From the NCBI GenBank assembly GCA_949299195.1, contig CASFZN010000019.1, forward strand, positions 1-64,000: DNA of 64,000 nucleotides, read 5' to 3'. Source of the stretch: an uncultured bacterium (GTDB lineage Bacteria; Bacillota_I; Bacilli_A; RFN20; CAG-826). Both the position numbers and the translations under genes were made by a program. Shown in pieces: positions 6,754-30,329 of the stretch (positions within the stretch are counted from its first letter, which is position 1; the number at the start of each line of letters is the position of its first letter). The notes below the pieces were generated by a model, which worked only from the letters and a program-made list of their open reading frames with translations, had not been told where the DNA came from and did no database searches.

Positions 6754-6758
6754 TTTAA
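5254..6758 (+). pseudogene. IS3-family transposase OrfA/OrfB, disrupted
   Basis: Starts at ATG 5254. OrfA has two helix-turn-helix stretches, OrfB the DDE integrase core (TDITEF, NDRGF, CEGFFGTIKNEFY). Disruptions include TGA 5365-5367 where RRWYN is expected, a frameshift near 5390, TGA 5932-5934 where ALKW is expected, TAG 6202-6204, a frameshift plus TAA near 6436 and another TAA near 6513. The OrfA-OrfB junction CGA AAA AAT TAA (about 5716-5728) contains A AAA AAT, an X XXY YYZ heptamer suited to the -1 frameshift typical of IS3. The TGA codons may be decay or a trace of a UGA=Trp donor. Confidence 0.85.
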
Positions 6759-6897
6759 ATAATTTTTAAAGTTTTACTAGATTTTTTTATACTGTAAAAC
6801 AAATTGCGATTGATACAATAGATACAATTTTTTAAGATTCAAAAATAAAAAAACGCGATGGTTATCGCGATTTTTGCAAGATGGTGACCTATACGGG
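6754..6897. repeat. attL: left direct repeat with tRNA-Glu 3' fragment
   Basis: 144 bp, about 93% identical by eye to 23717-23862. It includes the tRNA-Glu terminator and the last 16 bases of the tRNA gene (TGGTGACCTATACGGG on the plus strand), after which similarity stops. This is the displaced 3' end expected when an element integrates into the tRNA 3' end. Confidence 0.85.
6848..6875. terminator. terminator hairpin (displaced tRNA-Glu terminator)
   Basis: CGCGAT-GGTT-ATCGCG with A tract before and T tract after, so functional on either strand. The twin lies at 23811-23840. Confidence 0.7.
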
Positions 6898-7103
6898 GTT
6901 TTATTCAATTAAATTTATAAATAAAATTTATATTTTATTTATTAAAAATTGTTTTTTATAAATTTAAATTATGTAAAAATTTTCAATTTTTATTTTTTGT
7001 ATCAAGATTGTATCAGAGGATAGAAAAGGTTGGACATACAGGTTTGGGTGTGATGTTATCTGGAAGAATTAGAATGAGTTCTTTTAATTCCCTTGCAATA
7101 TAG

Positions 7104-7211: not shown

Positions 7212-7273
7212 AGCACCTCCTATTATCAAAAAAGATAGATTTATTTCTATCCAATTACTAAGAAGGTGGTGTT

Positions 7274-7303: not shown

Positions 7304-7411
7304 GTCTATCCTTATAAATAATTTCTAGGGTTATTGGATAGAGGGAGGAAAGATTTAGCGTTGAGGAAAAAATAAAATAAGTATAAAATAAAAGTGCTTA
7401 AAGGTTATGCT

Positions 7412-7528
7412 TTAAAGCAATATTGTTTTAATAATTTCAATTATGGTTGAAATTATTTTGAGTATTAGAAGTGCTAGTTCTAGTACTCTTTTTTTATTTT
7501 TTTCATTTTTGAAAATCCTCCTTCTCAT
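7412..7528 (-). CDS. 38-residue membrane micro-protein, paralogue of 7104-7211
   Basis: The hydrophobic part VLELALLILKIISTIIEII matches LELALLILQIIVTLVEII of the neighbour. The open frame starts at ATG 7528, but the better ribosome site (AGGAGGATTTTC) serves an internal ATG at 7506 whose frame ends after eight codons. One extra A in the AAAAAAA run (7488-7494) would join that start to the hydrophobic frame. So this is a frameshifted, slippage-decoded or alternatively started copy. A divergent partner ORF (from 7588, MREIIYIF...) again shares its upstream sequence in inverted orientation. Confidence 0.45.
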   Translation of the reverse strand: MRRRIFKNEKNKKRVLELALLILKIISTIIEIIKTILL

Positions 7529-7661: not shown

Positions 7662-7943
7662 TTACTTGTTTAATTTTTGTTTTTTCTCTAATTCATTAAT
7701 AATATTTTTTGCTTCTATTAATATATCTAATTGTTCTTTTGTTAAATAAATATTATTAGCAGGATCAATTAAATCAGATACTGGTATTTTATATAATTTT
7801 GATAAAAGATTTGCATAGTCAAAATTAAGCTTAACTTTACCAGTTTCAATGTTTGAGTAATTGGGCTGTGTAATTCTTAAATAATCTGCAACAAATTTTT
7901 GATCATATTTGTTTTTTGTTCTATAGTATTTTAATTTATTCAT
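7662..7943 (-). CDS. XRE-family HTH regulator
   Basis: A 93-residue protein with an N-terminal lambda-Cro-type HTH (KYDQKFVADYLRITQPNYSNIETGK) and a short C-terminal helix rich in Lys and Glu. It is a paralogue of the 94-residue regulator at 8238-8522: both end in TKEQLDxLIEAKNIIxE-like sequences. Its start overlaps the end of the 101-residue gene by 8 bases. The three genes form one minus-strand operon, probably the repressor module of the integrated element. Confidence 0.8.
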   Translation of the reverse strand: MNKLKYYRTKNKYDQKFVADYLRITQPNYSNIETGKVKLNFDYANLLSKLYKIPVSDLIDPANNIYLTKEQLDILIEAKNIINELEKKQKLNK

Positions 7944-8241
7944 ATTTTTCTTGTTTTTCTAGTTTTTTTATATTTTTAAAGGAATCTTTTAAATAATCTA
8001 AAAAATCATAAATGGTAAAATTTTCTTTATTAAAATTTCCTTCGTTGATTGTAAATTCATACATAGAATTTACTAAATATAACATTGGTAAAAAACCATT
8101 AGTCATTGAATCTTTAGAATATGCATGTTCATATAAAAGGATGGCTGAAGAAAATAATTTATCTGATAGTTCTTCAATTGATGAATATATATGTTCTTGC
8201 ATTGAAGTGACTTTTTGTTCTTCGTGATTATGAATGTTCAT
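7936..8241 (-). CDS. hypothetical protein between the two XRE regulators
   Basis: A 101-residue, mostly helical soluble protein with no signal peptide or membrane segment and no motif I recognise. Its start overlaps the preceding regulator by 4 bases (ATGA type) and its end overlaps the next, so translation is coupled. Its place between two repressors suggests a partner or modulator of them (an inference). The name of any family is unknown to me. Confidence 0.65.
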   Translation of the reverse strand: MNIHNHEEQKVTSMQEHIYSSIEELSDKLFSSAILLYEHAYSKDSMTNGFLPMLYLVNSMYEFTINEGNFNKENFTIYDFLDYLKDSFKNIKKLEKQEKYE

Positions 8242-8522
8242 TTTGTTGTCTCCTCTATTTCTTCAATTATGTTTTTAGCTTCTATTAGTTTTTTAAATTG
8301 ATGTTCGGTTATTAATATTTCTTTTGGATTATCATCTAAAAGATATGTTAATGAAACATTAAAATATGATGAAATCTTTTTGATGTGTTCAATCGTAAAT
8401 GATTGTTCTCCAGATTCATATCTAGAATAATTACTTCCTTTAGTGCCAATTATTTTGGCCATTTTTTCTTGTGTTAATTTATTTGTTTTCCTTAAATATT
8501 TAACTTTTTTGTTAAGTTCCAT
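8238..8522 (-). CDS. XRE-family HTH regulator (promoter-proximal)
   Basis: A 94-residue protein with HTH residues about 8-60 (NKLTQEKMAKIIGTKGSNYSRYESG) and a C-terminal helical tail. It is the first gene of the minus-strand regulatory operon and faces the forward gene set across a 113 bp region with two identical-spacing inverted repeats. It is the most likely ligand of those repeats and so a cI-like switch controlling the element's forward genes. Confidence 0.82.
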   Translation of the reverse strand: MELNKKVKYLRKTNKLTQEKMAKIIGTKGSNYSRYESGEQSFTIEHIKKISSYFNVSLTYLLDDNPKEILITEHQFKKLIEAKNIIEEIEETTK

Positions 8523-9750: not shown

Positions 9751-10239
9751 ATGGCAGAAGAAAATAAAAACATTGTTACTAATAACAAAAAAGAAGAAAA
9801 AACAACATTTAAAAAAATGAGTGAAATTGGAAAGGATGATGTTAAAACATTTATCCCTGTTCAATGTAACTTATCAAAAATTAAAAGAAACAATTTTGAA
9901 ACTTATATTATTTCTATTCCTGTAGCTTTAGTGCATTTAGATATTAGATTGGATCAAATTGATTTCTTTAAAATTTGTGAAGTAAAAGGTTTAAATTCAT
10001 TTCAACAATCTAGAGGTGTTAATGGATTTATCAGATATGTTACAGGTAAAGATAAAAATGATAACGATTATCATCAAGTTCAATTATTTATCGCTACTGG
10101 AATATATTTCACATATTTATTAAGAGAGAAAGAATTACAGCTTTTCGATTTATGGATTAAAAATGGAAAAATGGATCCAATTAAATGGGCTGTTTGTCCA
10201 TCTAAAGAAATTGAAAGCGGGTTAGAATATTTTGACTAA
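9751..10239 (+). CDS. hypothetical protein (162 aa)
   Basis: ATG 9751, preceded by AAAAGGAG. The first 35 residues are Lys/Glu/Asn-rich and probably disordered. Residues 40-160 look like a compact alpha/beta domain (FIPVQCNLSKIKRNNFETYIISIPV...). There is no signal peptide or membrane helix. I recognise no family. Its position ahead of the structural cassette and its charged N-tail would suit an ssDNA-binding or assembly protein (an inference only). Confidence 0.7.
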   Translation: MAEENKNIVTNNKKEEKTTFKKMSEIGKDDVKTFIPVQCNLSKIKRNNFETYIISIPVALVHLDIRLDQIDFFKICEVKGLNSFQQSRGVNGFIRYVTGKDKNDNDYHQVQLFIATGIYFTYLLREKELQLFDLWIKNGKMDPIKWAVCPSKEIESGLEYFD

Positions 10240-10324: not shown

Positions 10325-10591
10325 ATGAAATTAAAAATTTACAATCCTTTCTCTATGAAACAGAAAAGATATGCTAAAACTTTTACAGAAAATGAACTTA
10401 AAAATAGATATAAACAGACTGAAAAGGATTTAGCTAAACATTCTAAAAATAAAGATTGGGAATCATGGAAAAAGGCAATGAAAGAACATAGAGATTATGA
10501 ATATGCAATGTATTATAAAACTTCTTTAGGTTCTAAAAAGACAAAAATGACTGGTAATAAAAATAATAATTTAAGGAGAAATAAAAAATAA
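10325..10591 (+). CDS. basic hypothetical protein (88 aa)
   Basis: ATG 10325. An 88-residue Lys-rich helical protein with aromatic residues (YNPFSMKQKRYAKTF ... WESWKKAMKEHRDYEYAMYY) and a basic tail. It could bind nucleic acid. Its stop is directly adjacent to the next ATG (10592), whose ribosome site AAGGAG lies inside this gene, so the two are co-translated. No family is assigned. Confidence 0.65.
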   Translation: MKLKIYNPFSMKQKRYAKTFTENELKNRYKQTEKDLAKHSKNKDWESWKKAMKEHRDYEYAMYYKTSLGSKKTKMTGNKNNNLRRNKK

Positions 10592-11677
10592 ATGAAACAA
10601 AAAACAAAAACTATTATTTCATGTGCAGTCGCTTGTCTTGTACTTGCATTGGGTGTTGGTGCTTTAGCTACTGCTTCTAAAGGATTTACAGATTGGAACA
10701 CAGATAATTGGGGACAAAATTTCAAAGATTTAGTCAACAAGGATGAAGTTGATCCGACAGAAGAAAAAGTTGATACATTAATTGTTGAAGATACAGATAC
10801 TAATAAAACTTATTTAATGCCTGCAAAATCATTGAATTTCGGAAATGCTTATAGTGGTGACGATGAAGAAGTTGTTGATACTCTCGAAAAATCACCATTA
10901 GGAGTTGCTAAAACAATGTCTAAAGGCGTTGAGAATAATTTAATGGCTACCGGTTCTTCTATTACTTATCCACAAACAATTAATTTATCAGCTACTGTTA
11001 CTCCAGTTGAAGCTGAAGAGTATTGTGAATATCTTTGGGAAATTACTTGGGGTGGAACCGAAAGTATTTCAGCGTATATTACTTTAGAAAATGCAAATAC
11101 TAAAAATGTTGTCGTTAAAGTTTTAAAACCATTTAACCATACTGCAACTTTAAAAGTAACAGCGACTGCGAATGGTATTTTACCAGTTACTGATACTTGT
11201 TCTGTTGAATTCTATAAACAATTAACTGGAATTGATTTAACAATGACAGGCGCAATGGAAGATAAAATTTTAAATGAAGGTGACCAAATTACCTATACCG
11301 TTACACCTAAATATTCTGGTGGTACTGTAGATCAAGAAGATGAATCAGAAGTTGTTGTTACATATTCAAGTTTAATTAGCGACTACACCATTAATTACGA
11401 TTTCATGAAAAACGATATTAATAGCGGTAAGGTCGCATTTAGTCATAATGAATTCTATAACGCTTCTGGAAACTTTACTGGTGTCAATGTTTTAACTGGT
11501 GCCGGTAGAAATTTAATGAATGCAAAGCTTAAAACTTCATCTGGAGATTTTAAGATTACAGCTACAAAAGGTATTTATTCAAAATCTATTAATTTAGATA
11601 TTGATCCTGAAGATGTTGTTTATCCAGAATCTGTTCAAATTGGAGATGGTTCAGATATCGAAATTGGTGCAAATTAG
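10592..11677 (+). CDS. exported Ig-like-domain protein (361 aa)
   Basis: Residues 1-28 form a signal anchor (basic MKQKTK, then IISCAVACLVLALGVGALA). The exported part carries Ig-like beta-sandwich repeats around residues 120-225 and 225-360 (TYPQTINLSATVTPVEAEEY ... LTGIDLTMTGAMEDKI). Its leader resembles that of the 727-residue protein (MKKKTKNILGGIVCCLCLV), so the two are related at the N-terminus. First of four consecutive exported proteins. A surface or virion-like role is inferred. Confidence 0.7.
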   Translation: MKQKTKTIISCAVACLVLALGVGALATASKGFTDWNTDNWGQNFKDLVNKDEVDPTEEKVDTLIVEDTDTNKTYLMPAKSLNFGNAYSGDDEEVVDTLEKSPLGVAKTMSKGVENNLMATGSSITYPQTINLSATVTPVEAEEYCEYLWEITWGGTESISAYITLENANTKNVVVKVLKPFNHTATLKVTATANGILPVTDTCSVEFYKQLTGIDLTMTGAMEDKILNEGDQITYTVTPKYSGGTVDQEDESEVVVTYSSLISDYTINYDFMKNDINSGKVAFSHNEFYNASGNFTGVNVLTGAGRNLMNAKLKTSSGDFKITATKGIYSKSINLDIDPEDVVYPESVQIGDGSDIEIGAN

Positions 11678-11689
11678 AAGGTATTGACT

Positions 11690-13165
11690 ATGAAATTTAA
11701 TAAATTATTTGGAATATTTTCATCTTTATTAATTTCATTATTTTCTTATCCTTCTAATCAAAATTTAAATTTTAATTACTTAAATTGTGGAGAATGCTTT
11801 GGTTGTTGCGACCATGAGCATTCTCATAATCATAAGATTGAAGAATTAATTGTTGGGAATGATTTAAATACAAATGCTATTTATGATATTCCTTCATCGG
11901 TTATTTTTGCTACTTCGACATTAAATTCTACGGAAAATTATGGAGAAGTTATCATTCAAGCAAATTATGAACCTGAAGGATGTTTAGTTGATTCAATTTG
12001 GGAAACTAGTGATGAAACAAAAATCACAGTTACTCCAGATGATTCAGATAGTAGTATTTGTAAGTTAACTTGTATTGCTCCTTTCGATGATGAAGTAACA
12101 ATTACGGTTAAATCTTTATATTTTCCATCATTAAGTCATTCGATTAAAGTTACTTATGATTATGGAATTGTTATATCTGCCAAAGTTACTTCTGTAACTT
12201 TAAGTGGCAAATATAATTACAATTGCGATGGTTCTTCAATTACTTTAGGTGATGAATTTGATAGAGAATTATTAAGTGATATTTTTTCTGTTAGTGATTC
12301 ATCTTTAGTTTCATACAGTGTTCCAAATGGTAGTGATTATGCTGGTATTAGTGGAAGTTATCTAGTTCAATCATCCAGAAGTTCCTATTCTTCTGGAATT
12401 GTTAGATGTTATCAAACAAATAATCCTAGCAATTATGTTGATGTAAATTTTTCAACTACTTCAACTACTTATAGTCGTTCACATAGTTATTCGACTACTT
12501 CATCTGCTACTTGCACAAGCTCTGGTAAAAAAACTTGTTCTAATTGTGGCGATATAGTAACTATTTCTGCTCTAGGACATTCATATGGTTCTTGGACTAG
12601 TTATTCTGATCCTGTTGTTTCTAGCGAGTATGATGCAACTTGTACTGAAGATGGCTATACCAGATATATGAAATACAGAACTAGAACATGTTGGAGATGT
12701 GGAGATAAAGATTATGATTATGAATTTTATAATGATGATTATGTAGATGCTTTAGGACACTCTTATACAGATAAAGAATATAGTTATACTGCATATTCGG
12801 CTGCGCAACACACTAAATATACCTATGATGTCTGTTCTAGATGTGGTGAAAGGGATAGTGGTTCAACTAGTGTTAAAGAAAATCACACTATTAGCGGTAG
12901 CTGGTCTTATTATACAGCTACTTATCATAGAAAAACTGGAACATGTACAGATTGTGGCAGATCTTCTTCTTATGTACAAGCTACGCATTCTTATACCGGT
13001 AAATATTGTTATGAATGCAAAGGAAAATTGAATTTGCTTGGTTCAAGTGGTAGTAGTTCTGCTACTTATAAATGTAGTTCATGTAGTCGAACTTATTCTT
13101 TCACTTCATCATCAACTCCCGATTATTACACTAAATGTGAATGCGGGAACTATAAATTAGCTTAG
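11690..13165 (+). CDS. secreted Cys-repeat protein (491 aa)
   Basis: Translation should start at ATG 11690 (AGAAGG 9 bases upstream), not at TTG 11684. A signal peptide (KLFGIFSSLLISLFSYPS) is followed by a Cys/His patch (CGECFGCCDHEHSHNH), an Ig-like region, and at least four zinc-ribbon-like modules of the form TCxxCG..ALGHSY between residues 270 and 490. Such Cys-pair repeats are common in cell-surface proteins of gut Firmicutes. Function in the element is unknown; adhesion is plausible. Confidence 0.7.
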   Translation: MKFNKLFGIFSSLLISLFSYPSNQNLNFNYLNCGECFGCCDHEHSHNHKIEELIVGNDLNTNAIYDIPSSVIFATSTLNSTENYGEVIIQANYEPEGCLVDSIWETSDETKITVTPDDSDSSICKLTCIAPFDDEVTITVKSLYFPSLSHSIKVTYDYGIVISAKVTSVTLSGKYNYNCDGSSITLGDEFDRELLSDIFSVSDSSLVSYSVPNGSDYAGISGSYLVQSSRSSYSSGIVRCYQTNNPSNYVDVNFSTTSTTYSRSHSYSTTSSATCTSSGKKTCSNCGDIVTISALGHSYGSWTSYSDPVVSSEYDATCTEDGYTRYMKYRTRTCWRCGDKDYDYEFYNDDYVDALGHSYTDKEYSYTAYSAAQHTKYTYDVCSRCGERDSGSTSVKENHTISGSWSYYTATYHRKTGTCTDCGRSSSYVQATHSYTGKYCYECKGKLNLLGSSGSSSATYKCSSCSRTYSFTSSSTPDYYTKCECGNYKLA

Positions 13166-13176
13166 GAGATAATTTA

Positions 13177-15360
13177 ATGAAAAAGAAAACAAAAAATATT
13201 TTAGGTGGTATTGTTTGTTGTTTATGCTTAGTAGCTGTAGTTGGTGGAGTTACTGCATTATTAGTAAACACAGATAATCCAATTATTGATAAAGAAGAAA
13301 TTGGTATTAATTCTATTAATGGATTAGATAAGGTGACTTTAAACTCAGCTGAAACTTATTTAGATGAGAAGGAAGTTAAAGTAGTTGAAGATTATTATTT
13401 ATATAAATTTGAAGTAGATCCAGGAAATGCAAATAAATATGAGTTTGAAATAACTTCATCAAATCAATTTATAAAGATAGTCGATAATGACAAAACGGAC
13501 TTTGAATTTCAGATTAGTGCTTATTCTCAGTTTAAAGAACCTGCTTATATTAATATAAAAGATACTATTTCAAAAAAAGTAAAAACTATTGAAGTATTAT
13601 GGGATAACTATGATGAAGAAAAAGCTTCTATTATCTTTATATATAATTTCAATGGAATAGTTGATGATACTAAAACTTCTGTTTTAGAAGTCAATATTGG
13701 GGAAACTATTGATCCTAATCCTTATAAATTAGAATTCTCAGGTTATAAATTTGAAAAAGTTGAAGGTATTACAGAATTCGTTTCTTTTCAATTAAATGAA
13801 AATAAAGTAGTGGCCTTATATTATGTTAGCGATTTGGTTACTTTAACCGTTGAATATTATAAAGATGATGTTTTGGATGATTCTTTAACTGATATTTATT
13901 CATATGAAAAAGAGAAAGATATTTATATTAATTCTTTTAAAAAAGATATTTACGGATATAAATATAGTTCTTGTTCTATGACTGATAATTTTAAAATTTA
14001 CGAGAATACAACTTTAAAATATTATTACATTTTAGATGAATCTGTTGTAGATCCAGAGAATCCTCCAATTGATATTAATATTAGAGGTGAGGTTAATGGT
14101 GAATATATTACTAACTATAATGGCATAAGCGGTAATGTTTTAGGTGATCTAACTATTACAGGATATTCGGGAATAGTTTATTTATCTACTTCTTCATATT
14201 GTGATGATTATTCAAGTTTGGAAGTCACAGATGGTCAAGTAGTTGAAATTAACGACACATTTACAAGTGGTACTAGTGGTTCTAGTGGATTTGCTGGTGG
14301 TAACCTTTCATCTACTGGGGGAAGAATCTATGTATTTAATACTTCTAAAGAATTATTAGGATCATTTGTTTATACAATGGAAAATGTAACTGTTGAAGTT
14401 TCAGTTACAGGAGATATTGATGTTGATTATATTGTTGGTTATAACTCTGTTAGTGGTAATGTTTCTGGGAATATAACAGTTATAGGCTATACAGGTACTA
14501 TTTATTTATCAACTACTAGTGCTTGTGCAGATTATTCTGAATTATCAGTAGAAAATGGAATAGTTGAAACAATTAATGACACATTTACAAGTGGTACTAG
14601 TGGTTCTAGTGGATTTGCTGGTGGGAATTTATCTACTAACGGCGGAACAATTTATATTTTTAATACACGTAAAGTTATGATTGGTTCGATTACTTATACA
14701 GCCAATAATATAACTCCTGAAGTTACTTTATCTGGCAATTTAGCTGTTGAATATAATATTCAAAACAATACAATTAGCGGAAATGTTGAAGGTTTCATTA
14801 CTGTTGAAAATTATACTGGTGAAATCAGAGTTAGTACCTCTAATCCTATTGAAGATTATTCAACACTAAATGTAACAGCTGGACAAAAATTAACTATTAA
14901 GGAATCTTTTACTTCTGGCATTTCAGCTTCAAGCGGTTTTGCTGGAGGATATATTAATTCATCTGGTGGAACTTTTTATTTTTATAACACTCGAAATGTT
15001 TTAATCGGTGCTCTTAACTATGAATGTATTAATATGACTGAAAATATTGAAGTTACTGGTAATTTAACTTCGACTTATGAAACTGCTTCTAATGCTGTTC
15101 ATGGAGTCGTTAGTGGGAATGTTACTATAAATGGATACACAGGAACCGTATATGTAGCTACTACTAGCGATTTAGGAGAAGATTATTCTACTCTTACAGT
15201 TAGTGATGGAGTTTCAACTACATTAAATGAATCATGGAGTTCTGGAACAACTGGAGCTACAGGATTTGCTGGTGGCTATATCAATTCATCTGGCGGAACA
15301 TTTTACTTCTTTAATTCAAGTAAAGTATTAATTGGATCATTAGCTTATACAATAAGTTAA
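13177..15360 (+). CDS. exported four-repeat surface protein (727 aa)
   Basis: Signal anchor at residues 7-35. Residues about 50-300 are an unassigned region with MucBP/Flg_new-like pieces (VTLTVEYYKDDVLDDSL). Residues about 300-727 form four tandem repeats of roughly 105 residues, each with ITGYTGxIYLST, FTSGTSGSSGFAGGN and GGxIYxFNTRKVxIGS blocks. The glycine/serine-rich beta repeats suggest a fibre or adhesive stalk. Repeats 1 and 2 are nearly identical over FTSGTSGSSGFAGG, pointing to recent duplication. Confidence 0.72.
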   Translation: MKKKTKNILGGIVCCLCLVAVVGGVTALLVNTDNPIIDKEEIGINSINGLDKVTLNSAETYLDEKEVKVVEDYYLYKFEVDPGNANKYEFEITSSNQFIKIVDNDKTDFEFQISAYSQFKEPAYINIKDTISKKVKTIEVLWDNYDEEKASIIFIYNFNGIVDDTKTSVLEVNIGETIDPNPYKLEFSGYKFEKVEGITEFVSFQLNENKVVALYYVSDLVTLTVEYYKDDVLDDSLTDIYSYEKEKDIYINSFKKDIYGYKYSSCSMTDNFKIYENTTLKYYYILDESVVDPENPPIDINIRGEVNGEYITNYNGISGNVLGDLTITGYSGIVYLSTSSYCDDYSSLEVTDGQVVEINDTFTSGTSGSSGFAGGNLSSTGGRIYVFNTSKELLGSFVYTMENVTVEVSVTGDIDVDYIVGYNSVSGNVSGNITVIGYTGTIYLSTTSACADYSELSVENGIVETINDTFTSGTSGSSGFAGGNLSTNGGTIYIFNTRKVMIGSITYTANNITPEVTLSGNLAVEYNIQNNTISGNVEGFITVENYTGEIRVSTSNPIEDYSTLNVTAGQKLTIKESFTSGISASSGFAGGYINSSGGTFYFYNTRNVLIGALNYECINMTENIEVTGNLTSTYETASNAVHGVVSGNVTINGYTGTVYVATTSDLGEDYSTLTVSDGVSTTLNESWSSGTTGATGFAGGYINSSGGTFYFFNSSKVLIGSLAYTIS

Positions 15361-15373
15361 TAAGGAGTAGATT

Positions 15374-17188
15374 ATGTTAAAGGTTCTAAATTCTTTTGTT
15401 ATAGCTTTAACTATATTCTCTTCTTCCGTTCCTTTAGCTTTAAATAGTGAAGAATATGTAAAGTTTGATTCTACAACGATAGAAAGTGATTTAGAGAATG
15501 CTGGATATGATGTATCTGGCATTCAATCACTATCTCAACCTAAATTTATTGATTTTATAGAGTATGCTTATGGAAGTGAATATTATGGACTTTATTTTTA
15601 TGTTTATATTCCTACTTCTTATGATTTAGATTTAAGTTCAAGTTTAAATAAGATTCAATTAGCTGTAGCTTCAAATTCTAATTATCAAAAATATTCTATT
15701 GAATGTTTAGATGAAGCCGATAACATTTATAAATTTAAAGTTAATTTTACTGATGAAGAATTATCAATGATTATGAATAGGCTTTCAAATTTTGAGAGAG
15801 TTTATCAAGTTAGTGGGTTTGAAATTAAAGATATTAATTCATCTAATGCAACTGAATATGCTATTGGTGGTAAATATAAATATTCTGGGTTCGCAAAAGG
15901 TATTGATGGAAATACTTCTTCTACTTTAACTAGGAAAGTTAAAGAAATTGAAACTTTAAGTTTAGATGTTCAACAAACTTATTATAATTTTGAAGGTGAT
16001 AATTTTTATGATGATCATTATCAATTAAATAGTGTTTATTTCTCTATTCCAAATCAAATATTAAATGAATATGGGGAAATTTACGCTATAAATTTTGAAT
16101 ATTATGAATATAAAACTTCTCCAATTATTTTCTTAAGAGAAAGTGTATATGATTATTTTGATGATTATATAGGTGTTGTTCATACTGAAGAAAATAATCC
16201 TGGTAAAAAATTGGTTTATGACGTTTATGATGCCACTGCTGTAGCAGGCAGTAATTTAAGAACGTGTGATTTAGTTGATAAAGATCTTGGTGGACAAATA
16301 ACTGGAACTCCATATTTTAAAGAAAATAATTATCTAACTTGGTTATTTTCTGTTCCAGAAGGAGAAGAAACAACTTTTACTAGAGAACAATTATTAAATT
16401 ATTTATATAGCTATGATAAATCTTATTATAATGGTAAAAATTATCGTGGATTATCAATGGATTTATTAAATGGTACTGTTGATGAAGGTCATACACAAGG
16501 TTATAACAAAAAAGTTATAAATAGTGATGATACTTATTCTATTGATATTAAATTAAGAGATTTTTGGTCTAGTATTGCAGCTGGTTTTGGTCATCCGCAA
16601 TATGAAGAATTGGAATTAGATCCCTTTATAAAAATAGATAGCACTAATATTAATAATGAAAATTATATTTCGGATTTAGATTTAAACGATTTTAAAACTT
16701 TCGTTTCTGAATCTAATTCAAAAAATGAATCAACTTATTTATTTAGATTTAATCTTGGAAAATACCAGTATGCACCTATATATGATGTAACCTATGGGGA
16801 TCTATTTCGTGAGGGTAGAGATGGATATGTTTATGAATTAAATTTATTCTTAGATTTTGACATTATAGATATTACATTTATGAAAGATGGAATAACCACT
16901 ATCATTCCAGCGGTTAGCAATCCTATTGATATTATTTCTAATATAGTTGTTCCAGCGGTTCCAGAATATATTTCTAGCAAAATAATTACCATTATAAAAA
17001 TTGTAATTTTAATAGCTTTAATAATTTTAGGAATTTTCCTTTTAAATCAATTGTTTGGTTTATTTGGGATTTCTTTTAAAGATATTTTCAACTTTATTTT
17101 TGTAAAACCTTTTAAGTGGGTAAAGGGGAAATTTGAAGGAAATAAAAAGAAGAAATCCAATAAAAATAAAAAACGAACTAAAAAATAA
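15374..17188 (+). CDS. exported protein with C-terminal membrane anchor (604 aa)
   Basis: Signal peptide at residues 1-25 (LKVLNSFVIALTIFSSSVPLA), a ~500-residue extracytoplasmic region with no recognised domain, a membrane helix near residues 537-560 (IIKIVILIALIILGIFLL) and a Lys-rich cytoplasmic tail (KKKSNKNKKRTKK). The topology resembles an anchored receptor, pilus-base or pIII-like virion protein. It ends in AAA AAA TAA at 17181-17188. A -1 slip there would enter the next open frame (17185-17475). Confidence 0.72.
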   Translation: MLKVLNSFVIALTIFSSSVPLALNSEEYVKFDSTTIESDLENAGYDVSGIQSLSQPKFIDFIEYAYGSEYYGLYFYVYIPTSYDLDLSSSLNKIQLAVASNSNYQKYSIECLDEADNIYKFKVNFTDEELSMIMNRLSNFERVYQVSGFEIKDINSSNATEYAIGGKYKYSGFAKGIDGNTSSTLTRKVKEIETLSLDVQQTYYNFEGDNFYDDHYQLNSVYFSIPNQILNEYGEIYAINFEYYEYKTSPIIFLRESVYDYFDDYIGVVHTEENNPGKKLVYDVYDATAVAGSNLRTCDLVDKDLGGQITGTPYFKENNYLTWLFSVPEGEETTFTREQLLNYLYSYDKSYYNGKNYRGLSMDLLNGTVDEGHTQGYNKKVINSDDTYSIDIKLRDFWSSIAAGFGHPQYEELELDPFIKIDSTNINNENYISDLDLNDFKTFVSESNSKNESTYLFRFNLGKYQYAPIYDVTYGDLFREGRDGYVYELNLFLDFDIIDITFMKDGITTIIPAVSNPIDIISNIVVPAVPEYISSKIITIIKIVILIALIILGIFLLNQLFGLFGISFKDIFNFIFVKPFKWVKGKFEGNKKKKSNKNKKRTKK

Positions 17189-17524: not shown

Positions 17525-17587
17525 GTTACTTATATTTTACTTAAATAAAGATAAAAGTAAATAAAAAATTAATAAGGACTGGTGAAT

Positions 17588-17944
17588 ATGAAAGAAAAAA
17601 CTAATGATAAATGGAAATTATTATTAATTATTCTAATAGGATTTTTAGCTATTGTTATTGGATATTATTTCATCAGTCCTTATATAAAAATTTTTAATGG
17701 AATTCATGTAGAACTTAATGAATTAGTAAATAAATATTATGTATCTGATGATAGTAATTATTTACTTTTAATTGATGAAGATAATTGTTTTTTAACTGAT
17801 GGTAATAATGATAAAACATTTAATTTTACATATGAAGAAGGCTTAATTTCTTCAACTGAAGATAATTTTATTGTCCTTACTTCAAGTAGTTTACGGTATA
17901 TAGAAGGGGGATGTTACTTTTATGAATATAATGAAGAAAATTAA
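17588..17944 (+). CDS. hypothetical single-pass membrane protein (118 aa)
   Basis: ATG 17588 is chosen because AAGGA lies 9 bases upstream; the GTG at 17582 is too close. Residues 10-32 are a membrane helix (KLLLIILIGFLAIVIGYYFI) followed by a ~85-residue acidic external or periplasmic domain. Its end overlaps the start of the 747-residue ATPase by 23 bases, which implies coupled expression and perhaps physical partnership. Confidence 0.65.
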   Translation: MKEKTNDKWKLLLIILIGFLAIVIGYYFISPYIKIFNGIHVELNELVNKYYVSDDSNYLLLIDEDNCFLTDGNNDKTFNFTYEEGLISSTEDNFIVLTSSSLRYIEGGCYFYEYNEEN

Positions 17945-20165
17945 AAATAAGAGATATTTTATCCCTTCTTTAATTATTGTTTTATTAATTATTACTCTAG
18001 GTTCAATTTTTTCATATGGATCATATTTTAAAATTGGACTTTCATTAGAATTTTTTATTAATAGTTGTGTTACTTATTTCCAAAGTTTATTAAGAATTGA
18101 AACAAGTGATGTTTATACTACTTTTGATTTGATAAAGGATGTAAATATGGGGGTAGTGGATTCCTCACCAGTCATTTCCACTATCCCTTTATTTGCATTA
18201 TCTTTTAATTTAGATAATTTAGTTCTTTACTTAAAAGAAGGCTTTTTTATGGCTTTTGACTATTATTCATTTATAAATTACTTTTCTGGATTTATTAATG
18301 TTTTTAGTTATTTAAATTTTATAGTTTTAATTTTAATTTTCTTAATAGCTTTAAAGATATTTATTTCTTCTATTTCATTTAACGAAGTAGATCCAGGAAA
18401 GATTGGATATACAAAAAAATATAAAGGATTTGAAAATTTTATTTATAAAGTTTTTCATCCTATTTATATATATTTAAAGAATTTTTATAAATATATTAAA
18501 GAAAAGAAGATTTTAACTTTAATAATTGTTTTACTTTTAGTTTATTCTAACTGCATTTCTATTATTATTGATTTATTCGCTTACTTTTTCTATTTTTCTT
18601 CTAGTTTTGACTTAATGTTAATTTTAGAAGCTTTAGTTAGTTCAATATATTTAGTATTTCCTATTATTAGCCAAATTAATTTATTTGGATGGATAGTTAT
18701 CTTCTATTTAATTTTTGATTATATAAGAAGAAAAAGAGCTTTAAATTTATTAATTTCTTTAGAAAGTTCAAACTTAAAGTTCTGTGATACTAAATTAGGA
18801 CTTGTTAATTTATTCGATGGATTAATGGGTGGCTTTAAAACTTCTACTATTACTGATTTTGCTTTGACAACATCCAAATTATTTAGATATAGCATTAATG
18901 ATAATTTATATAAATATCGTTCAATGTTGCCTTACTTTAATTTTTCTTATTTAGAAAAATATGTTGAAAGACTAGCTTTAGAAAATACTGTTTATAATCA
19001 TGCTCAACTTGAATATTTATTAGAATTGAGATTTAAAATTGCTAACACTTCTTTAACTAGCTATAAATCATATTATTATTTTTCTTATGATTTTAAAAAA
19101 TATAAAGATTATTACTGGGATGGAACTAAGAAAATTACTCTTGATTATATTTTAATAGAGTACGCCAAGAATTATTTTTATTATTTTACTCAAAATAATT
19201 ACATTTATTCTAACTATCCTATTAAAACTATTGAAGCTGTAATTAATCGTGGTTATTATCCAGAATATGCTTGTCACTATTTTTTCATTAAGGAAGAAGA
19301 ATATGATCTAACTGCTAGATTTTCGCATTGTATAAATCTTAATGAAATAAGAATTAAAAAATATTTCAATGATTTAAATAATTTTAATTTTAATAAAAAG
19401 GATAAAGACTTATCACCTTTATTCTCTTTTGGTGTTGTTGCTTATGCTGAAGCTGAAAAAGATTTGGGTAATCAAAATACTAATAAAATTTATGATTTAA
19501 AAGATTTAAATGCTAATCCTTTAAATGATGGAACAGATTTAATTTTAAAAATGATTCGTCATGTTTGTAATTTGAATTTTAAGCCATACATTAAATTGTT
19601 TTTAGATATGCAACGATTCGGCGATTTAGCTAGTAAATATAAAGATATTTCTACTTCTTTAATTAGAGCCGTTAATGTTCAAGATAAACTAGCTTTAAGA
19701 TTATGGACTATCGAAGGTATTTTCTGTCGATTTGTTATTAGGAAAAGAAAAGAAATAGATCATGAAATGAAAACAACCAGAAATAGATTTGGTATCTTAT
19801 ATTACATTTTTAATAAATGTACTTATTTCATCGAAAATTATTACAACAAAAATATTAATAAATATTCTTATAAAAAGTTAACTCTACTTGTTAAAGGTAG
19901 GGAAGAGGATGAAGGAGAAGAATATTCATACTTTTTAATTAACGCTAAGATCTTTGCTGATTCTTATAGAACTGACTCTCACTACTCATTGTTTAAGTCA
20001 GTTTTGAAAAAATCCAAAAAAGGTGTTTATTCAAATGACTTATATTCTGGATTAAATGCTACTGTAGGAGAAATGAACTCCCAACATAGCTATTTTAATG
20101 ATCGATTAGAAAGATTATTTGAGGATAACCTTAAAGCTGATAAAGGAGAAGATATATATGAGTAA
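17922..20165 (+). CDS. membrane ATPase upstream of rep (TcpA/Zot-like)
   Basis: A 747-residue protein. Residues 1-280 contain about six membrane helices. At about residue 297 is a P-loop-like GLMGGFKTS, in which the usual final glycine of GxxxxGKT is Phe. FGVVAYAEAEKDLGNQ (about 501) is a likely Walker B region and LDMQRFGDLASKY (about 560) resembles the sensor region of FtsK/HerA-type coupling or Zot-like ATPases. It would act at the membrane to drive DNA or virion export. The position directly before rep matches ConQ-NicK and TcpA-MobT pairs. No other secretion ATPase was found. Family assignment is tentative. Confidence 0.55.
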   Translation: MNIMKKIKNKRYFIPSLIIVLLIITLGSIFSYGSYFKIGLSLEFFINSCVTYFQSLLRIETSDVYTTFDLIKDVNMGVVDSSPVISTIPLFALSFNLDNLVLYLKEGFFMAFDYYSFINYFSGFINVFSYLNFIVLILIFLIALKIFISSISFNEVDPGKIGYTKKYKGFENFIYKVFHPIYIYLKNFYKYIKEKKILTLIIVLLLVYSNCISIIIDLFAYFFYFSSSFDLMLILEALVSSIYLVFPIISQINLFGWIVIFYLIFDYIRRKRALNLLISLESSNLKFCDTKLGLVNLFDGLMGGFKTSTITDFALTTSKLFRYSINDNLYKYRSMLPYFNFSYLEKYVERLALENTVYNHAQLEYLLELRFKIANTSLTSYKSYYYFSYDFKKYKDYYWDGTKKITLDYILIEYAKNYFYYFTQNNYIYSNYPIKTIEAVINRGYYPEYACHYFFIKEEEYDLTARFSHCINLNEIRIKKYFNDLNNFNFNKKDKDLSPLFSFGVVAYAEAEKDLGNQNTNKIYDLKDLNANPLNDGTDLILKMIRHVCNLNFKPYIKLFLDMQRFGDLASKYKDISTSLIRAVNVQDKLALRLWTIEGIFCRFVIRKRKEIDHEMKTTRNRFGILYYIFNKCTYFIENYYNKNINKYSYKKLTLLVKGREEDEGEEYSYFLINAKIFADSYRTDSHYSLFKSVLKKSKKGVYSNDLYSGLNATVGEMNSQHSYFNDRLERLFEDNLKADKGEDIYE

Positions 20166-21411
20166 AATTTTTTCATTGACAGAATTTAACTCCTTTATGA
20201 AGAGCACTAGGGGGGTTAGTAATACCCCCCTAGTGCAAGTAAAAAAGAAAAATTTTTGTATCGATTATTTATCGGTAGTTATCGACAAAAAGTTTATTTT
20301 TGATACCATCTTCGCTGACGAGGTCATGAAAGCACTTTCTATTGACAAAAATGTTGCTGTAAGGAAGTGCGGTTTAAATGGTTATGATGTTGGATATTTA
20401 TTCAATGAATATATATCTATTTATACTGGTGGAGAATTTACAAAAAAAGATGGAAAAGAAACAACTCAAATTGAATTAAAAGGTGAAGGATGTAGAAAAT
20501 TTGAAGAGTTAGGTGGTTCTTGGATAGAACTTTTTGAATTTTTAATTAAAAATGAGTTTGATTTTAAAAGAATAGATTTAGCTTATGATGATTTTGAAGG
20601 AACTTTAAATTATGACACTTTATTAGAGAAAGTTGTGAATCATGAATTTGTAAGTTGTTCAAAAAAATTACCAGTAATTTTGTTTTCTAAATTTGGAAAT
20701 GAATATAAAGGCTTTTCTATTACTTTTGGTTCTAGAAATTCATCTAGAAGTTTACAAATTTATGATAAAAAAAGTGAAAGAATGAATAAAAATTTTGCAT
20801 ATATCGATTGTAAAACTTGGACTCGTTGTGAGATAAGATTTAGAAACGATTATGCAAATGAAATTAAAGAAAGTGTTCTTGTTTCATTATATGAAAATAA
20901 GTTTGATTTACTCGTTAAATCATTGATTAGAAATGTTGTTGATTTTAAAGAATATTATGATTCAGATAACACGGCTAGATTAAAGACTTGGAAAGTTTGG
21001 GATAAATTTTTAGATGAATCAGTGCGTATCAAAATTGTCAGACAATATGATTTAGAAAAATCTTTATGTAAAAAAGCAAACTGGATGAAACGAAGTGTAG
21101 CTAAAACATTAATGGATTTATATTTATCTAATCCAAATTACTTCTATTCATTAATTAATTTCTTAATTATTTCTAAAATTGAAAAACTTGATAATGAAGA
21201 TTTATGTGTTGTTAATAATGGATCAGATAAATTTCATTCAAATAATAGATTTAGAAACAAAGAAGAATTAGTTAAATTCATAAAAGATAATTTAATGGTC
21301 GAATCGTTTAACATTGAATATCTACGAAGTCTTTTAGGAAATGATGTAAATGAAACAATTATGAATTTAGAAAAGATAATAAAAGGTGAGGATTATTTAT
21401 ATGATGAATAA
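20158..21411 (+). CDS. Rep_trans-family replication initiator / MobT-like relaxase
   Basis: ATG 20158, with AAAGGAG upstream, overlaps the ATPase stop by 8 bases. The 418-residue product has the Rep_trans signature: GEGCRKFEELGG-SWIELFEFL, KRIDLAYDDFEG (about residue 138), ITFGSRNSSRSLQIYDKKSE (about 185-206, with the candidate catalytic Tyr) and WTRCEIRFRN. In this family (RepC, NicK, MobT) a Tyr nicks DNA to start rolling-circle replication or transfer. A GC-rich palindrome lies within codons 16-27. The C-terminal 180 residues are less conserved. Confidence 0.8.
   Translation: MSKIFSLTEFNSFMKSTRGVSNTPLVQVKKKNFCIDYLSVVIDKKFIFDTIFADEVMKALSIDKNVAVRKCGLNGYDVGYLFNEYISIYTGGEFTKKDGKETTQIELKGEGCRKFEELGGSWIELFEFLIKNEFDFKRIDLAYDDFEGTLNYDTLLEKVVNHEFVSCSKKLPVILFSKFGNEYKGFSITFGSRNSSRSLQIYDKKSERMNKNFAYIDCKTWTRCEIRFRNDYANEIKESVLVSLYENKFDLLVKSLIRNVVDFKEYYDSDNTARLKTWKVWDKFLDESVRIKIVRQYDLEKSLCKKANWMKRSVAKTLMDLYLSNPNYFYSLINFLIISKIEKLDNEDLCVVNNGSDKFHSNNRFRNKEELVKFIKDNLMVESFNIEYLRSLLGNDVNETIMNLEKIIKGEDYLYDE
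20204..20236. promoter_or_regulatory. oriT / double-strand-origin-like palindrome inside rep
   Basis: Perfect 13 bp arms GCACTAGGGGGGT and ACCCCCCTAGTGC with a 7-base loop TAGTAAT. Six-G and six-C tracts are exceptional in this AT-rich sequence. From memory, oriT of ICEBs1 and Tn916 also have ACCCCCC...GGGGGG arms around a CTAAC-containing loop near their Rep_trans relaxase gene. Here CTAAC occurs on the minus strand at the loop edge. Confidence 0.7.
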
Positions 21412-21710: not shown

Positions 21711-22058
21711 ATGAGAAAGTTTGTAAATATAAATAAGGTTTATAGAGTTTATGATAAAGATTTAGGATTAGGAAAGAATAAAAAAGGTTTTCATCATGTA
21801 ATACTGGTGCGGAAAAATGAAAAAAAACAGATATGTAGAGTTAAAACTATTACTTCATTAGAAAAAAGGCATAATGGAAAGTTAAGTTATAATTTCGAAG
21901 CTCTTAAAAAAGCAAAAGAAGGAATAATAACCCCGTTTTCAGTTAAAGAATTAAATACTGAGCATTGGTCAGGAATTTATAACAAATCTAAAGTTATAAG
22001 TTTTAAAAAATTAAAAAGAGCAACAAAAAATTATAAAAAACCTAAAAAGTTATATTAA
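21711..22058 (+). CDS. small basic protein (family member 3)
   Basis: ATG 21711, preceded by CGGAGG. 115 residues with KVYRVYDKDLG..KNKKGFHHVILVRKN, CRVKTITS, a KAKEGIITPFSV block and a very basic tail. The order H-h-h, T-S, G-I-I recalls the ORFs at 9300 and 17185 and, more distantly, the MazF/PemK-type beta-barrel. That resemblance is weak and function is unknown. Three hairpins follow immediately. Confidence 0.6.
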   Translation: MRKFVNINKVYRVYDKDLGLGKNKKGFHHVILVRKNEKKQICRVKTITSLEKRHNGKLSYNFEALKKAKEGIITPFSVKELNTEHWSGIYNKSKVISFKKLKRATKNYKKPKKLY

Positions 22059-22172: not shown

Positions 22173-23231
22173 ATGTCTATATATAAAGATAAAGATCGTT
22201 ACATAGTTAAAGTTTGTATTAATGGAAGACAAATTTTAAGAAGAAAATATTTAGGAAGAATTATTGCTACTAAGCAAATGGCTTTAGATTGCGAAAGAGA
22301 TTTATTTTTACAATATAGTGATGAACAAAAGGATTATGAAATCAATGATTTGTTTAACCTTTTTGAAGAATATTTATTTAAAAAATATAAAGAAACTTCA
22401 GCAAAAAGATATTTGAATAGTTTCAATTATGTTATTAAAAAATATTTTGTTAAGAAAAAGATTTCAAACATTACTAGAAGTTATTGTGAATTTTTGAATG
22501 ACTCAATTAATAATCTTCCATATTCAGGAATTGAGATTTATATATTTTTAGTTAAAATTTTTATAAATTTTTTATCTTTATATGGATTAAAAATTAATAG
22601 TTCTGTTTTTTATGTTTATAAAAGATCAAGAATAAAGAAAAAAGATTATAAGTATTATTCTTTTAAAGAATTTTTAAAGCTTATAAAAGTTATAGATGAT
22701 TCAAAAGATAAGTTAATATTTTCACTTCTTTTTTATTATGGGTTAAGAGTTGGAGAGTTAAGAGCTTTGCAAGTTAAGGATTTTAAAAAGGATAGAATTT
22801 CAATTAATAAAGAATTAACTAATAAGGGAAGGTTTGGTGGACAAAAAATATTAGATCCAAAAACTTCTTCTTCATTTAGAGAATATCCATATGTAAGAGA
22901 TATTAAAAAATTATTTGATGCTGTTGTTATAGAAAATAAGCTTGAAGAAGATGATTTTATTTTTATTAATAAAAAACAAAATAAAGTAATCGGAGAATCA
23001 TCCATTAGAAGAAAGTTGGATGAATATTCTTCGCTAGCTAAATTAAAAAGAATTAAGATTCATGAGTTTAGACATTCATGTGCAACTTATTTAATTAATA
23101 AAGATATAGATCCAAAAGATATTGCTTCCTGGCTTGGTCATTCAAGTGTTGATACAACTTTAAGAGTTTATTCTCATTTATTGCCAATAAGGAAAGAAAA
23201 TATCAAAAATATATTCAATAAGGAGGAATAA
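22173..23231 (+). CDS. int: tyrosine site-specific recombinase (integrase)
   Basis: A 352-residue protein with N-terminal AP2-like and SAM-like DNA-binding domains and a C-terminal catalytic domain. The Arg lies in YGLRVGELRAL (about residue 192), HxxR in HEFRHSCATYL (about 296-299), His in LGHSSVDTT and the nucleophile in RVYSHL (about 332). It lies next to the intact tRNA-Glu and would recombine the tRNA 3' end with the circular element. ATG 22173 lacks a strong SD, perhaps keeping expression low. The next ORF starts 2 bases after it. Confidence 0.92.
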   Translation: MSIYKDKDRYIVKVCINGRQILRRKYLGRIIATKQMALDCERDLFLQYSDEQKDYEINDLFNLFEEYLFKKYKETSAKRYLNSFNYVIKKYFVKKKISNITRSYCEFLNDSINNLPYSGIEIYIFLVKIFINFLSLYGLKINSSVFYVYKRSRIKKKDYKYYSFKEFLKLIKVIDDSKDKLIFSLLFYYGLRVGELRALQVKDFKKDRISINKELTNKGRFGGQKILDPKTSSSFREYPYVRDIKKLFDAVVIENKLEEDDFIFINKKQNKVIGESSIRRKLDEYSSLAKLKRIKIHEFRHSCATYLINKDIDPKDIASWLGHSSVDTTLRVYSHLLPIRKENIKNIFNKEE

Positions 23232-23716: not shown

Positions 23717-23862
23717 TTTAAATAATTTTTAAAGGTTTACTAGAATTTTTTTACACTGTAAAACAAATTGCGTTTGATACAATTGATACAATTTTTTGAG
23801 GTTCAAAAATAAAAAAAACGCGATAGTTATCGCGATTTTTGCAAGATGGTGACCTATACGGG
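23717..23862. repeat. attR: right direct repeat at tRNA-Glu
   Basis: 146 bp matching 6754-6897 with about eight substitutions and two single-base indels by eye. It covers the 3' end of tRNA-Glu and 130 bp beyond it, including its terminator (23811-23840). The tRNA-internal 16 bases are identical. Confidence 0.85.
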
Positions 23863-23923
23863 ATTCGAACCCATGAATGCATGCGTGAAAGGCATGTGAG
23901 TTAAGCCGCTTCTCCAATAGGCC
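23847..23923 (-). tRNA. tRNA-Glu (UUC), integration site
   Basis: 77 nt with encoded CCA. The anticodon loop CCTTTCACG gives UUC, and the acceptor stem is GGCCTAT/ATAGGTC. The T-arm GGGTTCGAATCCC is intact. Its 3' end is supplied by the element. A terminator follows on the minus strand. Confidence 0.95.
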
Positions 23924-24629: not shown

Positions 24630-24660
24630 ATAAATTAAACCTCCGAGTATAAATAAATTA

Positions 24661-29091: not shown

Positions 29092-29110
29092 GACTATTAC
29101 CCCCTCTTAC

Positions 29111-29146: not shown

Positions 29147-29205
29147 AAATTTTTATAAAAATTAAAAAATACGATAACTATCGAAGAAAAAAGTTTTAAA
29201 AATTT

Positions 29206-30312: not shown

Positions 30313-30329
30313 TTTTGCTATACCTCCTA

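What the first reader, a model, noticed from the sequence alone, without database searches (positions are those of the whole stretch)
10592..17188. Exported gene cassette with shared leader peptides
Four consecutive exported proteins form one transcription unit; two have closely similar signal anchors (MKQKTKTII and MKKKTKNIL), one has Cys-pair ribbons, one has four glycine-rich repeats and the last has a membrane anchor. It looks like a multi-part surface or virion structure rather than independent adhesins.
Basis: inference. Interest (0 to 1): 0.52.

Follow-up and report, generated by a model that had tools for sequence, protein, structure and literature searches.

The report
Surface-protein cassette of unrecognised provirus-like element
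The four exported genes are part of a mobile element of about 17,000 bases that has inserted into a transfer-RNA gene of a bacterium lacking cell-wall genes, and similar elements in many related bacteria suggest that they are the outer parts of an undescribed, non-tailed virus-like particle.

Summary
In detail: four exported ORFs, 6-13 nt apart, two with similar N-terminal anchors, one with CxxC pairs, one with four ~108-aa Gly-rich repeats, one with a C-terminal membrane anchor. They sit inside a 16,965-bp element between direct repeats at a tRNA-Glu 3' end, with repressors, an inovirus-type rolling-circle initiator and a tyrosine integrase. The conserved core is: exported N-anchored proteins, C-anchored protein (window 15374), ~118-aa membrane protein, membrane P-loop ATPase (17922), initiator. 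The ATPase occurs in 30 of 279 genomes of the order; 33 of 37 ATPase loci with enough upstream DNA carry the C-anchored family. Relatives end at other tRNA/tmRNA genes, one is a circular contig, and three carry diversity-generating retroelements that mutate an exported protein. No terminase, tailed-phage capsid, conjugation or Zot match was seen (17 of 42 PHROG families not shown). Gene order equals that of plasmavirus L2 and inoviruses; profile matches to L2 are weak. The host lacks transpeptidase and Mur-ligase genes. Best reading: a provirus of an undescribed non-tailed, membrane-assembled virus group, the four proteins being particle-surface components. No particle has been shown.

The parts
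6754..6900 (.). left attachment repeat (attL): tRNA-Glu 3' end plus terminator-like hairpin
   Evidence: direct repeat with 23718-23865, 83-88%; exact 37-nt core 6861-6897 / 23826-23862, spacing 16,965
7662..8522 (-). control region: two HTH repressor-like ORFs (7662-7943, 8238-8522) and a 101-aa ORF between them
   Evidence: ORFs; both HTH ORFs fall in cluster c2 with relatives' ORFs; HTH families found among 133 element proteins; assignment of these two is by reading
9751..10239 (+). 162-aa cytosolic protein just upstream of the cassette (possible ssDNA-binding protein by position only)
   Evidence: cluster c14 in the same position in L031-L033 and L056; no Pfam or PHROG match
10325..10591 (+). 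88-aa basic cytosolic protein, conserved neighbour
   Evidence: cluster c12
10592..11677 (+). exported protein 1, 361 aa, N-terminal membrane anchor 'KTIISCAVACLVLALGVGALATASKGFTDW', then an ectodomain
   Evidence: anchor motif in 17 of 164 distinct N-anchored upstream proteins, 13 of 42 loci
11684..13165 (+). exported protein 2, 493 aa, eight CxxC pairs; ATG start at 11690 also possible
   Evidence: relatives cluster c9
13177..15360 (+). exported protein 3, 727 aa, N-terminal anchor and four ~108-aa Gly-rich repeats
   Evidence: relatives in L031 and L034 have three GFAGG copies against four here
15374..17188 (+). C-anchored protein, 604 aa: signal, ectodomain, C-terminal membrane segment, basic tail; most conserved exported component
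   Evidence: one family across 36 of 40 candidates; alignment A8; AF2 of relative L059 is beta-rich, pLDDT 67.7
17582..17944 (+). 120-aa single-TM protein between the C-anchored protein and the ATPase
   Evidence: small N-TM gene found in 24 of 37 loci
17922..20165 (+). 747-aa membrane ATPase: four N-terminal TM segments, Walker A-like GLMGGFKTS, then conserved E, RH and Q motifs
   Evidence: homologues in 30 of 279 genomes; no convincing Pfam, PHROG or PDB match
20119..21411 (+). rolling-circle replication initiator
   Evidence: PF02486 Rep_trans 1.9e-33 and PF18106 3.2e-7
21711..22058 (+). 115-aa small basic protein, conserved neighbour
   Evidence: cluster c11
22173..23231 (+). tyrosine integrase
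   Evidence: PF00589 3.5e-22
23718..23865 (.). right attachment repeat (attR) overlapping the tRNA-Glu gene (23847-23923, - strand)

Best explanation
The four genes are the surface part of a temperate, integrated, circularising element that is most likely a provirus of an undescribed group of non-tailed viruses assembling at the cell membrane. Shown: integration between att-like repeats at a tRNA 3' end; an integrase; a rolling-circle initiator of the inovirus type; a module conserved in order of N-anchored exported proteins, a C-anchored protein, a small membrane protein and a membrane ATPase. Inferred mechanism: after excision the DNA is replicated by rolling circle; the exported proteins collect in the membrane through their N- or C-terminal anchors; the ATPase, in position and motifs the counterpart of the inovirus pI/Zot and plasmavirus ORF3 ATPases, drives DNA into the assembling particle and out of the cell without lysis; the N-anchored proteins cover the particle and bind the next host, which is why some relatives hypermutate one of them with a diversity-generating retroelement. 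In this host, which lacks peptidoglycan-synthesis genes, budding of a plasmavirus-like vesicle is the simplest exit.
For: Att repeats and integrase. Relatives bounded by repeats at other tRNA/tmRNA 3' ends, 11.0-16.7 kb: L031, L033, L035, L040, L042, L049, L051, L052; L039 is a contig with a 55-nt terminal overlap, i.e. a 16,053-bp circle. Gene order conserved in 33 of 37 loci. Initiator exchange: Rep_trans, REP_ORF2-G2P PF23343 in L041 and L067, Rep_OBD in one of 133 proteins; the closest phage initiators are mostly inoviral. DGRs in L039, L051 and L053: RT PF00078 in L039 and L051; TR-adenine mismatches 14/15, 17/20 and 16/16, with the VR at the 3' end of an N-anchored exported protein. Pfam scan of 133 proteins >=100 aa from 11 bounded elements found no terminase, portal, capsid, T4SS or Zot match. 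Same order as inoviruses and plasmavirus L2: C-anchored - small TM - ATPase. L2 ORF1 and ORF3 families are the best non-self matches of the C-anchored and ATPase families among 60 families, after sub-families of the same group; a lengthened alignment puts Walker A, acidic motif, RH and Q of the 618-aa branch in register with L2 ORF3. Host without PF00905 and PF08245.
Against: No recognised capsid or coat protein and no short (30-90 aa) coat gene in the window's own element. The profile matches to L2 are weak (C-anchored/ORF1 52.5% over 21 columns; ATPase/ORF3 59-77% over the P-loop region only). The AF2 model of the ATPase failed in its core, so the fold is untested. Relatives also live in walled bacteria (13 of 49 genomes examined have PF00905), so budding cannot be the universal exit. 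No relative was found in seven IMG/VR scans, though such pattern scans reach only close kin. The initiator also resembles MobT relaxases (far below cut-off). PHROGs gave one 'tail protein' family for 2 of 133 proteins and 17 of 42 matched families were not displayed.
Confidence: 0.6

Rival explanations
1. A true filamentous phage (Tubulavirales) with a strongly diverged pI ATPase: the particle is a filament, the N-anchor segments or small TM proteins are the major coat, and the C-anchored protein is the tip/attachment protein.
For: Initiator type and gene order equal those of inoviruses; a remote branch (618-629 aa ATPases, L093-L096, L099) has a 50-60 aa hydrophobic coat-like protein directly downstream of a ~150-aa cytosolic protein and upstream of the C-anchored proteins; L104 has an 88-aa stand-alone anchor protein; acidic, RH and Q motifs resemble those of pI, and a lengthened alignment of the 436-448 aa set with pI puts DE, an RH-like pair and Q in register.
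Against: No Zot match; four TM segments instead of one or two; most exported proteins are 160-730 aa; the standard alignment to Zot covers only 17 columns.
Confidence: 0.22
2. A conjugative or mobilisable element with an unknown contact/transfer apparatus: the exported proteins form a surface adhesin or channel and the ATPase is a coupling protein.
For: Rep_trans is shared with MobT relaxases (NCBIfam MobT 1.6e-18, score 66.7 against cut-off 600); integrase at tRNA; membrane P-loop ATPase; DGR targets are often membrane-anchored cellular proteins (PMC8144416, passages seen).
Against: No T4SS family among 133 proteins of 11 elements; the replaceable initiator includes the G2P and Rep_OBD types; no match in 72,556 plasmid records.
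Confidence: 0.13
3. A cell-surface adhesin or fitness island carried by an ordinary integrative plasmid, with no transfer role.
For: Large repetitive, Cys-rich exported proteins resemble bacterial adhesins; the N-anchored proteins vary greatly between elements.
Against: The ATPase and C-anchored protein are the most constant parts and travel together, usually with replication or integration genes.
Confidence: 0.05

Closest known systems
Plasmaviridae (Acholeplasma phage L2 and L2-like proviruses)
   Same: Temperate, integrates in tRNA genes, ~12 kb, wall-less Bacilli hosts; order exported proteins - ~600-aa C-anchored protein (ORF1) - small TM protein (ORF2) - ATPase with N-terminal TM segments (ORF3) - integrase (ICTV profile PMC12662186 read whole). 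AF2 model of the C-anchored family has L2 ORF1 at rank 3 of the viral library (E 6e-4 but TM 0.13).
   Different: L2 lacks a recognised initiator and is described as replicating bidirectionally; here there is a rolling-circle initiator. No significant sequence homology outside the integrase; the L2-like genomes examined were all without PF00905 (0 of 8, G378 included), whereas this group also occurs in walled hosts.
Tubulavirales (Inoviridae, Paulinoviridae, Plectroviridae)
   Same: Rep_trans or G2P-type initiator; order small/coat genes - attachment protein - ~90-140 aa membrane protein - ATPase - initiator; chronic non-lytic lifestyle would fit.
   Different: No Zot/pI profile match, four TM segments, no short coat gene in the window element, 17 kb, large ectodomain proteins.
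Pleolipoviridae (archaeal pleomorphic viruses)
   Same: Works-like comparison only (recalled; start of the abstract of PMC7547991 seen in a search listing): membrane vesicle with spike proteins carrying small DNA.
   Different: Archaeal; no sequence comparison was made.
Tn916-type ICEs (MobT relaxase)
   Same: Related initiator/relaxase superfamily and tyrosine integrase.
   Different: No T4SS or coupling-protein families.

Membership tests
Tubulavirales / inoviruses (criteria in PMC6813254, passages seen) | pI-like ATPase whose closest Pfam domain is Zot | tested here: not met
   No Zot match for the window ATPase, for the 618- and 448-aa relatives, or among 133 element proteins; hhalign to 8 pI proteins covers 17 columns
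Tubulavirales / inoviruses | pI with one or two TM segments | tested here: not met
   four N-terminal TM segments in the window and most relatives
Tubulavirales / inoviruses | short structural proteins of 30-90 aa with one TM | tested here: not met
   none recognised between the repressors and the ATPase in the window element; present in some relatives, e.g. L093-L096, L104, L106
Tubulavirales / inoviruses | rolling-circle initiator of an inovirus type | tested here: met
   PF02486 1.9e-33; 22 phage records matched, many of them inoviral
Tubulavirales / inoviruses | filamentous virion | not testable with these tools
   no virion data
Plasmaviridae | homology of structural proteins and ATPase to L2 | tested here: inconclusive
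   phmmer: only the integrase matches L2; hmmsearch of both profiles against the L2-like loci: no hit; hhalign 52.5% and 59-77%, best non-self of 60 families
Plasmaviridae | temperate provirus integrated in tRNA genes of wall-less Bacilli | tested here: met
   tRNA-Glu; host without PF00905 and PF08245
Plasmaviridae | gene order C-anchored - small TM - N-TM ATPase - integrase | tested here: met
   (an initiator lies between ATPase and integrase here)
Plasmaviridae | enveloped pleomorphic virion released by budding | not testable with these tools
   no virion data
Tn916-type ICE | T4SS ATPase and channel genes | tested here: not met
   no such family among 133 proteins of 11 bounded elements
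Tailed phage | terminase, portal, HK97 capsid | tested here: not met
   none in the Pfam scan; PHROG scan showed 25 of 42 families, none of these, but one 'tail protein' family for 2 of 133 proteins

The most novel reading that the evidence does not exclude
A new family-level group of temperate non-tailed viruses, found in this survey of the class Bacilli in both wall-less and walled hosts, that links plasmaviruses and inoviruses: rolling-circle initiators of filamentous phages combined with a membrane-anchored, DGR-diversified surface coat and an ATPase distantly related to plasmavirus ORF3 and pI/Zot. If so, budding vesicle-like phages and extruded filamentous phages share one assembly engine, and a non-tailed phage uses targeted hypermutation of its surface ligand.
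Probability: 0.4. Interest if true: 0.85.

Novelty: new variant of a known kind. Interest (0 to 1): 0.68.

Why it matters
If true, a common class of mobile elements in gut and rumen Bacilli (30 of 279 genomes of the order; 20 of 395 of the class sample) has escaped the viral collections searched here because its ATPase matches no Pfam, PHROG or PDB profile. It would tie the isolated Plasmaviridae, for which the ICTV profile of 2018 named no homologues in other viruses beyond the integrase, to filamentous phages through their ATPases, and would put a diversity-generating retroelement on a membrane-anchored ligand of a non-tailed element. It also gives testable markers (C-anchored protein plus ATPase) for finding such viruses.

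Tried and rejected
Zot/pI by sequence: rejected as a direct match. Plasmavirus by sequence: no direct homology except the integrase; kept only as order plus weak profile and motif similarity. AF2 of the ATPase (alignment A6, 10 sequences): core under pLDDT 50, model discarded, no fold search made with it. AF2 of the C-anchored protein: usable ectodomain, but fold hits are generic Ig/FnIII-like domains, best Z 6.2; the L2 ORF1 hit has TM 0.13 and herpesvirus glycoproteins score similarly, so it is only suggestive. IMG/VR: seven scans, no relatives. Plasmid search empty. Empty-site test: not achieved; in six relatives htpG lies on the other side of the tRNA locus than in the window, so the flanks are rearranged. 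Of nine relatives' loci examined there, one (G150, L173) has a related integrase next to the same tRNA-Glu; the other eight have none in the flanks held. PDB look at two neighbouring chromosomal genes: nothing. Literature: seven searches returned no title that describes this group; of the papers I read the ICTV Plasmaviridae profile whole and passages of PMC8144416, PMC8530359, PMC6813254 and PMC10868615; the others were seen only as listings. Preprints and most subscription journals are not in that library. The Pfam scan of the 11 elements left out proteins under 100 aa and ORFs touching contig ends. A link of PHROG 5302 'tail protein' to the DGR targets is a guess; per-protein results were not shown.
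Full report
OBSERVATION. The four ORFs are present as described, 6-13 nt apart, without a + strand terminator-like site between them. Similarity of the two N-termini (1 of 2000 shuffles as high), the CxxC pairs (8 against a shuffle mean of 1.2) and the four repeats (324-327 nt) are beyond chance or nearly so (for CxxC the maximum of 2000 shuffles was also 8). The second ORF may start at ATG 11690; its signal is weak in the window but clearer in relatives.

THE UNIT IS LARGER. The cassette lies in an element bounded by direct repeats 6754-6900 and 23718-23865 that include the 3' end of a tRNA-Glu gene; an exact 37-nt core is spaced 16,965 bp. Inside are repressor-like ORFs, small ORFs, the cassette, a 120-aa single-TM protein, a 747-aa membrane ATPase, a Rep_trans initiator (PF02486 1.9e-33), and a tyrosine integrase (PF00589 3.5e-22).

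DISTRIBUTION. The ATPase is found in 30 of 279 genomes of the order, and with a profile in 20 of 395 of the class sample and 19 of 392 of the phylum sample (the two samples overlap heavily). One phage-collection record matches (MT835493.1, unannotated human-faecal clone); plasmids none; IMG/VR none in seven scans. Nine loci come from named 'Bacilli bacterium' or uncultured MAG records, several from rumen samples. A remote branch has 618-629 aa ATPases (hhalign 99.9% over 462 columns); a three-member set of 436-448 aa proteins also aligns (98.4% over 353 columns).

CONSERVED ORDER. In 33 of 37 ATPase loci with at least 3.5 kb upstream in hand, a member of one C-anchored family (window 15374-17188) lies on the same strand within 6 kb; the remaining five of the 42 loci had too little sequence. 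By single-linkage BLAST, 36 of 40 candidate C-anchored proteins form one family, including the remote branch. N-anchored exported proteins precede it and differ widely in ectodomain; an anchor followed by a (T/S/A)(K/R/D/N/S)GF pattern occurs in 17 of 164 distinct N-anchored upstream proteins from 13 of 42 loci, once as an 88-aa protein (L104).

MOBILITY. Direct repeats at tRNA or tmRNA 3' ends bound eight relatives: L031 tRNA-Arg 16,576 bp, L033 tRNA-Cys 16,748, L035 tRNA-Thr 11,049, L040 tRNA-Thr 14,091, L042 tRNA-Ala 11,460, L049 tRNA-Leu 12,776, L051 tRNA-Ser 16,534, L052 tmRNA 13,029. L039 is a contig with a 55-nt terminal overlap outside any tRNA (16,053-bp circle). L106 has a 77-nt terminal repeat that looks like a tRNA 3' end, so it could be a circle or an assembly break at att. 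A sister genome, G150, has a related integrase at the same tRNA-Glu. The ATPase tree places the window with L031-L033 (100/100), while walled and wall-less hosts are intermixed: at least 6 changes of the label over 36 labelled rows.

REPLICATION. Initiators are exchanged: Rep_trans, REP_ORF2-G2P (L041, L067), and Rep_OBD in one of 133 proteins. The nearest phage initiators are mostly inoviral. No initiator was recognised in L106 in the two proteins tested there.

HYPERMUTATION. L051, L039 and L053 carry DGRs: reverse transcriptase PF00078 7.7e-15 and 3.8e-15 for L051 and L039 (the RT of L053, cut by the end of the stretch, was assigned only by its cluster); TR/VR pairs in which 17 of 20, 14 of 15 and 16 of 16 mismatches fall on TR adenines. 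The VR is at the 3' end of an N-anchored exported protein (468, 497 and 550 aa) in the cassette or beside it. In L051 the order is exported proteins - DGR target - TR - RT - C-anchored protein - small TM - ATPase - initiator - integrase. This favours a ligand that must track a changing receptor (inference).

WHAT IS ABSENT. In 133 proteins of at least 100 aa from 11 bounded elements, Pfam shows integrases, repressors, initiators, two RTs, nucleases and little else: no terminase, portal, capsid, T4SS or Zot. PHROGs gave the same picture, with a 'tail protein' family for two members and a 'structural protein with Ig domain' for one; 17 of 42 families were not displayed.

RELATION TO KNOWN VIRUSES. 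The ATPase has a pI-type series of motifs: Walker A, an acidic residue after a hydrophobic strand, RH, hydrophobic strand, Q, in a different frame: four N-terminal TM segments and a long insert. Inoviruses have the order coat genes - attachment protein - ~90-140 aa membrane protein - pI - initiator. Plasmavirus L2 has exported proteins - ORF1 C-anchored - ORF2 small TM - ORF3 ATPase with N-terminal TM - integrase, repeated in L2-like proviruses found in 12 of 296 class genomes by ORF3 (11 stretches from 10 of them fetched). hhalign of the L2 ORF3 family against pI proteins gives 96.6%, E 6e-10 over 68 columns covering acidic, RH and Q motifs: plasmavirus ORF3 itself looks like a pI-type ATPase. 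Between this group and L2 the scores are weak (59-77% for the ATPase over the P-loop region, 52.5% for the C-anchored protein over 21 juxtamembrane columns), but apart from sub-families of the group itself each is the best partner among 60 families for the ATPase, and the L2 ORF1 family is the best for the C-anchored families after one further C-anchored sub-family; the two pairs occupy corresponding positions. A lengthened alignment of the 618-aa branch with the ORF3 family puts Walker A, SE/DE, RH and Q in register; the 436-448 aa set aligned with ORF3 only at Walker A and DE, but with pI at DE, an RH-like pair and Q; the 618-aa branch against pI was in register only at Walker A. The AF2 model of a C-anchored relative is beta-rich; L2 ORF1 is third in the viral library, with a TM-score too low to rely on.

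HOST. The window's genome (95.4% complete) has no transpeptidase (PF00905) and no Mur ligase (PF08245), while the controls ring in 10 and 12 of 14. Among 49 genomes carrying the ATPase or an L2-like ORF3, 13 have PF00905, 3 of 26 in the window's family; single Mur-ligase-like hits of about 410-430 aa in the others are probably FolC (recalled). Mixed walled and wall-less families agree with PMC10868615 (passages), which makes an order such as RFN20 plausible; I did not identify the taxon.

JUDGEMENT. Mobile element with a conserved multi-part surface module: near certain. Virus rather than conjugative element: about 0.8. Membrane-vesicle (plasmavirus-like) rather than filament: somewhat more likely in this host, undecided for the group. 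Not filed as a member of Inoviridae (defining features tested and not met) nor of Plasmaviridae (homology inconclusive).

Noticed in passing
L068 2278-3216 (plasmavirus L2 ORF3) and L161-L171: The L2 ORF3 family aligns with filamentous-phage pI/Zot ATPases (96.6%, E 6e-10, 68 columns). The 2018 ICTV profile says plasmaviruses share no homologous proteins except the integrase with other viruses.
   Followed up: partly
L161-L171: L2-like ORF3 genes occur in 12 of 296 genomes sampled from the class, most in proviruses of conserved order, beyond the single classified plasmavirus.
   Followed up: partly
window 5240-6760: Broken remains of what looks like an IS3-type transposase directly left of attL (by reading the ORFs).
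   Followed up: no
window 7104-7254 (-): Short very hydrophobic ORF beside attL, with a similar stretch near 7400-7500; possibly a small membrane toxin-like peptide.
   Followed up: no
window 24417-30336 (-): Row of chromosomal genes beginning with a 70-aa pilin-like protein and ending with a 376-aa protein, perhaps a pilus or Tad-like cluster; PDB sequence searches with two of them found nothing.
   Followed up: partly
window 2799-4724 versus relatives L173-L179: htpG lies left of the element here, but on the other side of the tRNA-Glu locus in six relatives, so the region was rearranged.
   Followed up: partly
L067 (MT835493.1): A GenBank 'Bacteriophage sp.' human-faecal clone without annotation carries the module with a G2P-type initiator.
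   Followed up: partly
L093-L099: The remote branch carries a UvrD-like helicase gene and a ~80-aa gene after its initiator (helicase by reading), an unusual addition for a small element.
   Followed up: no
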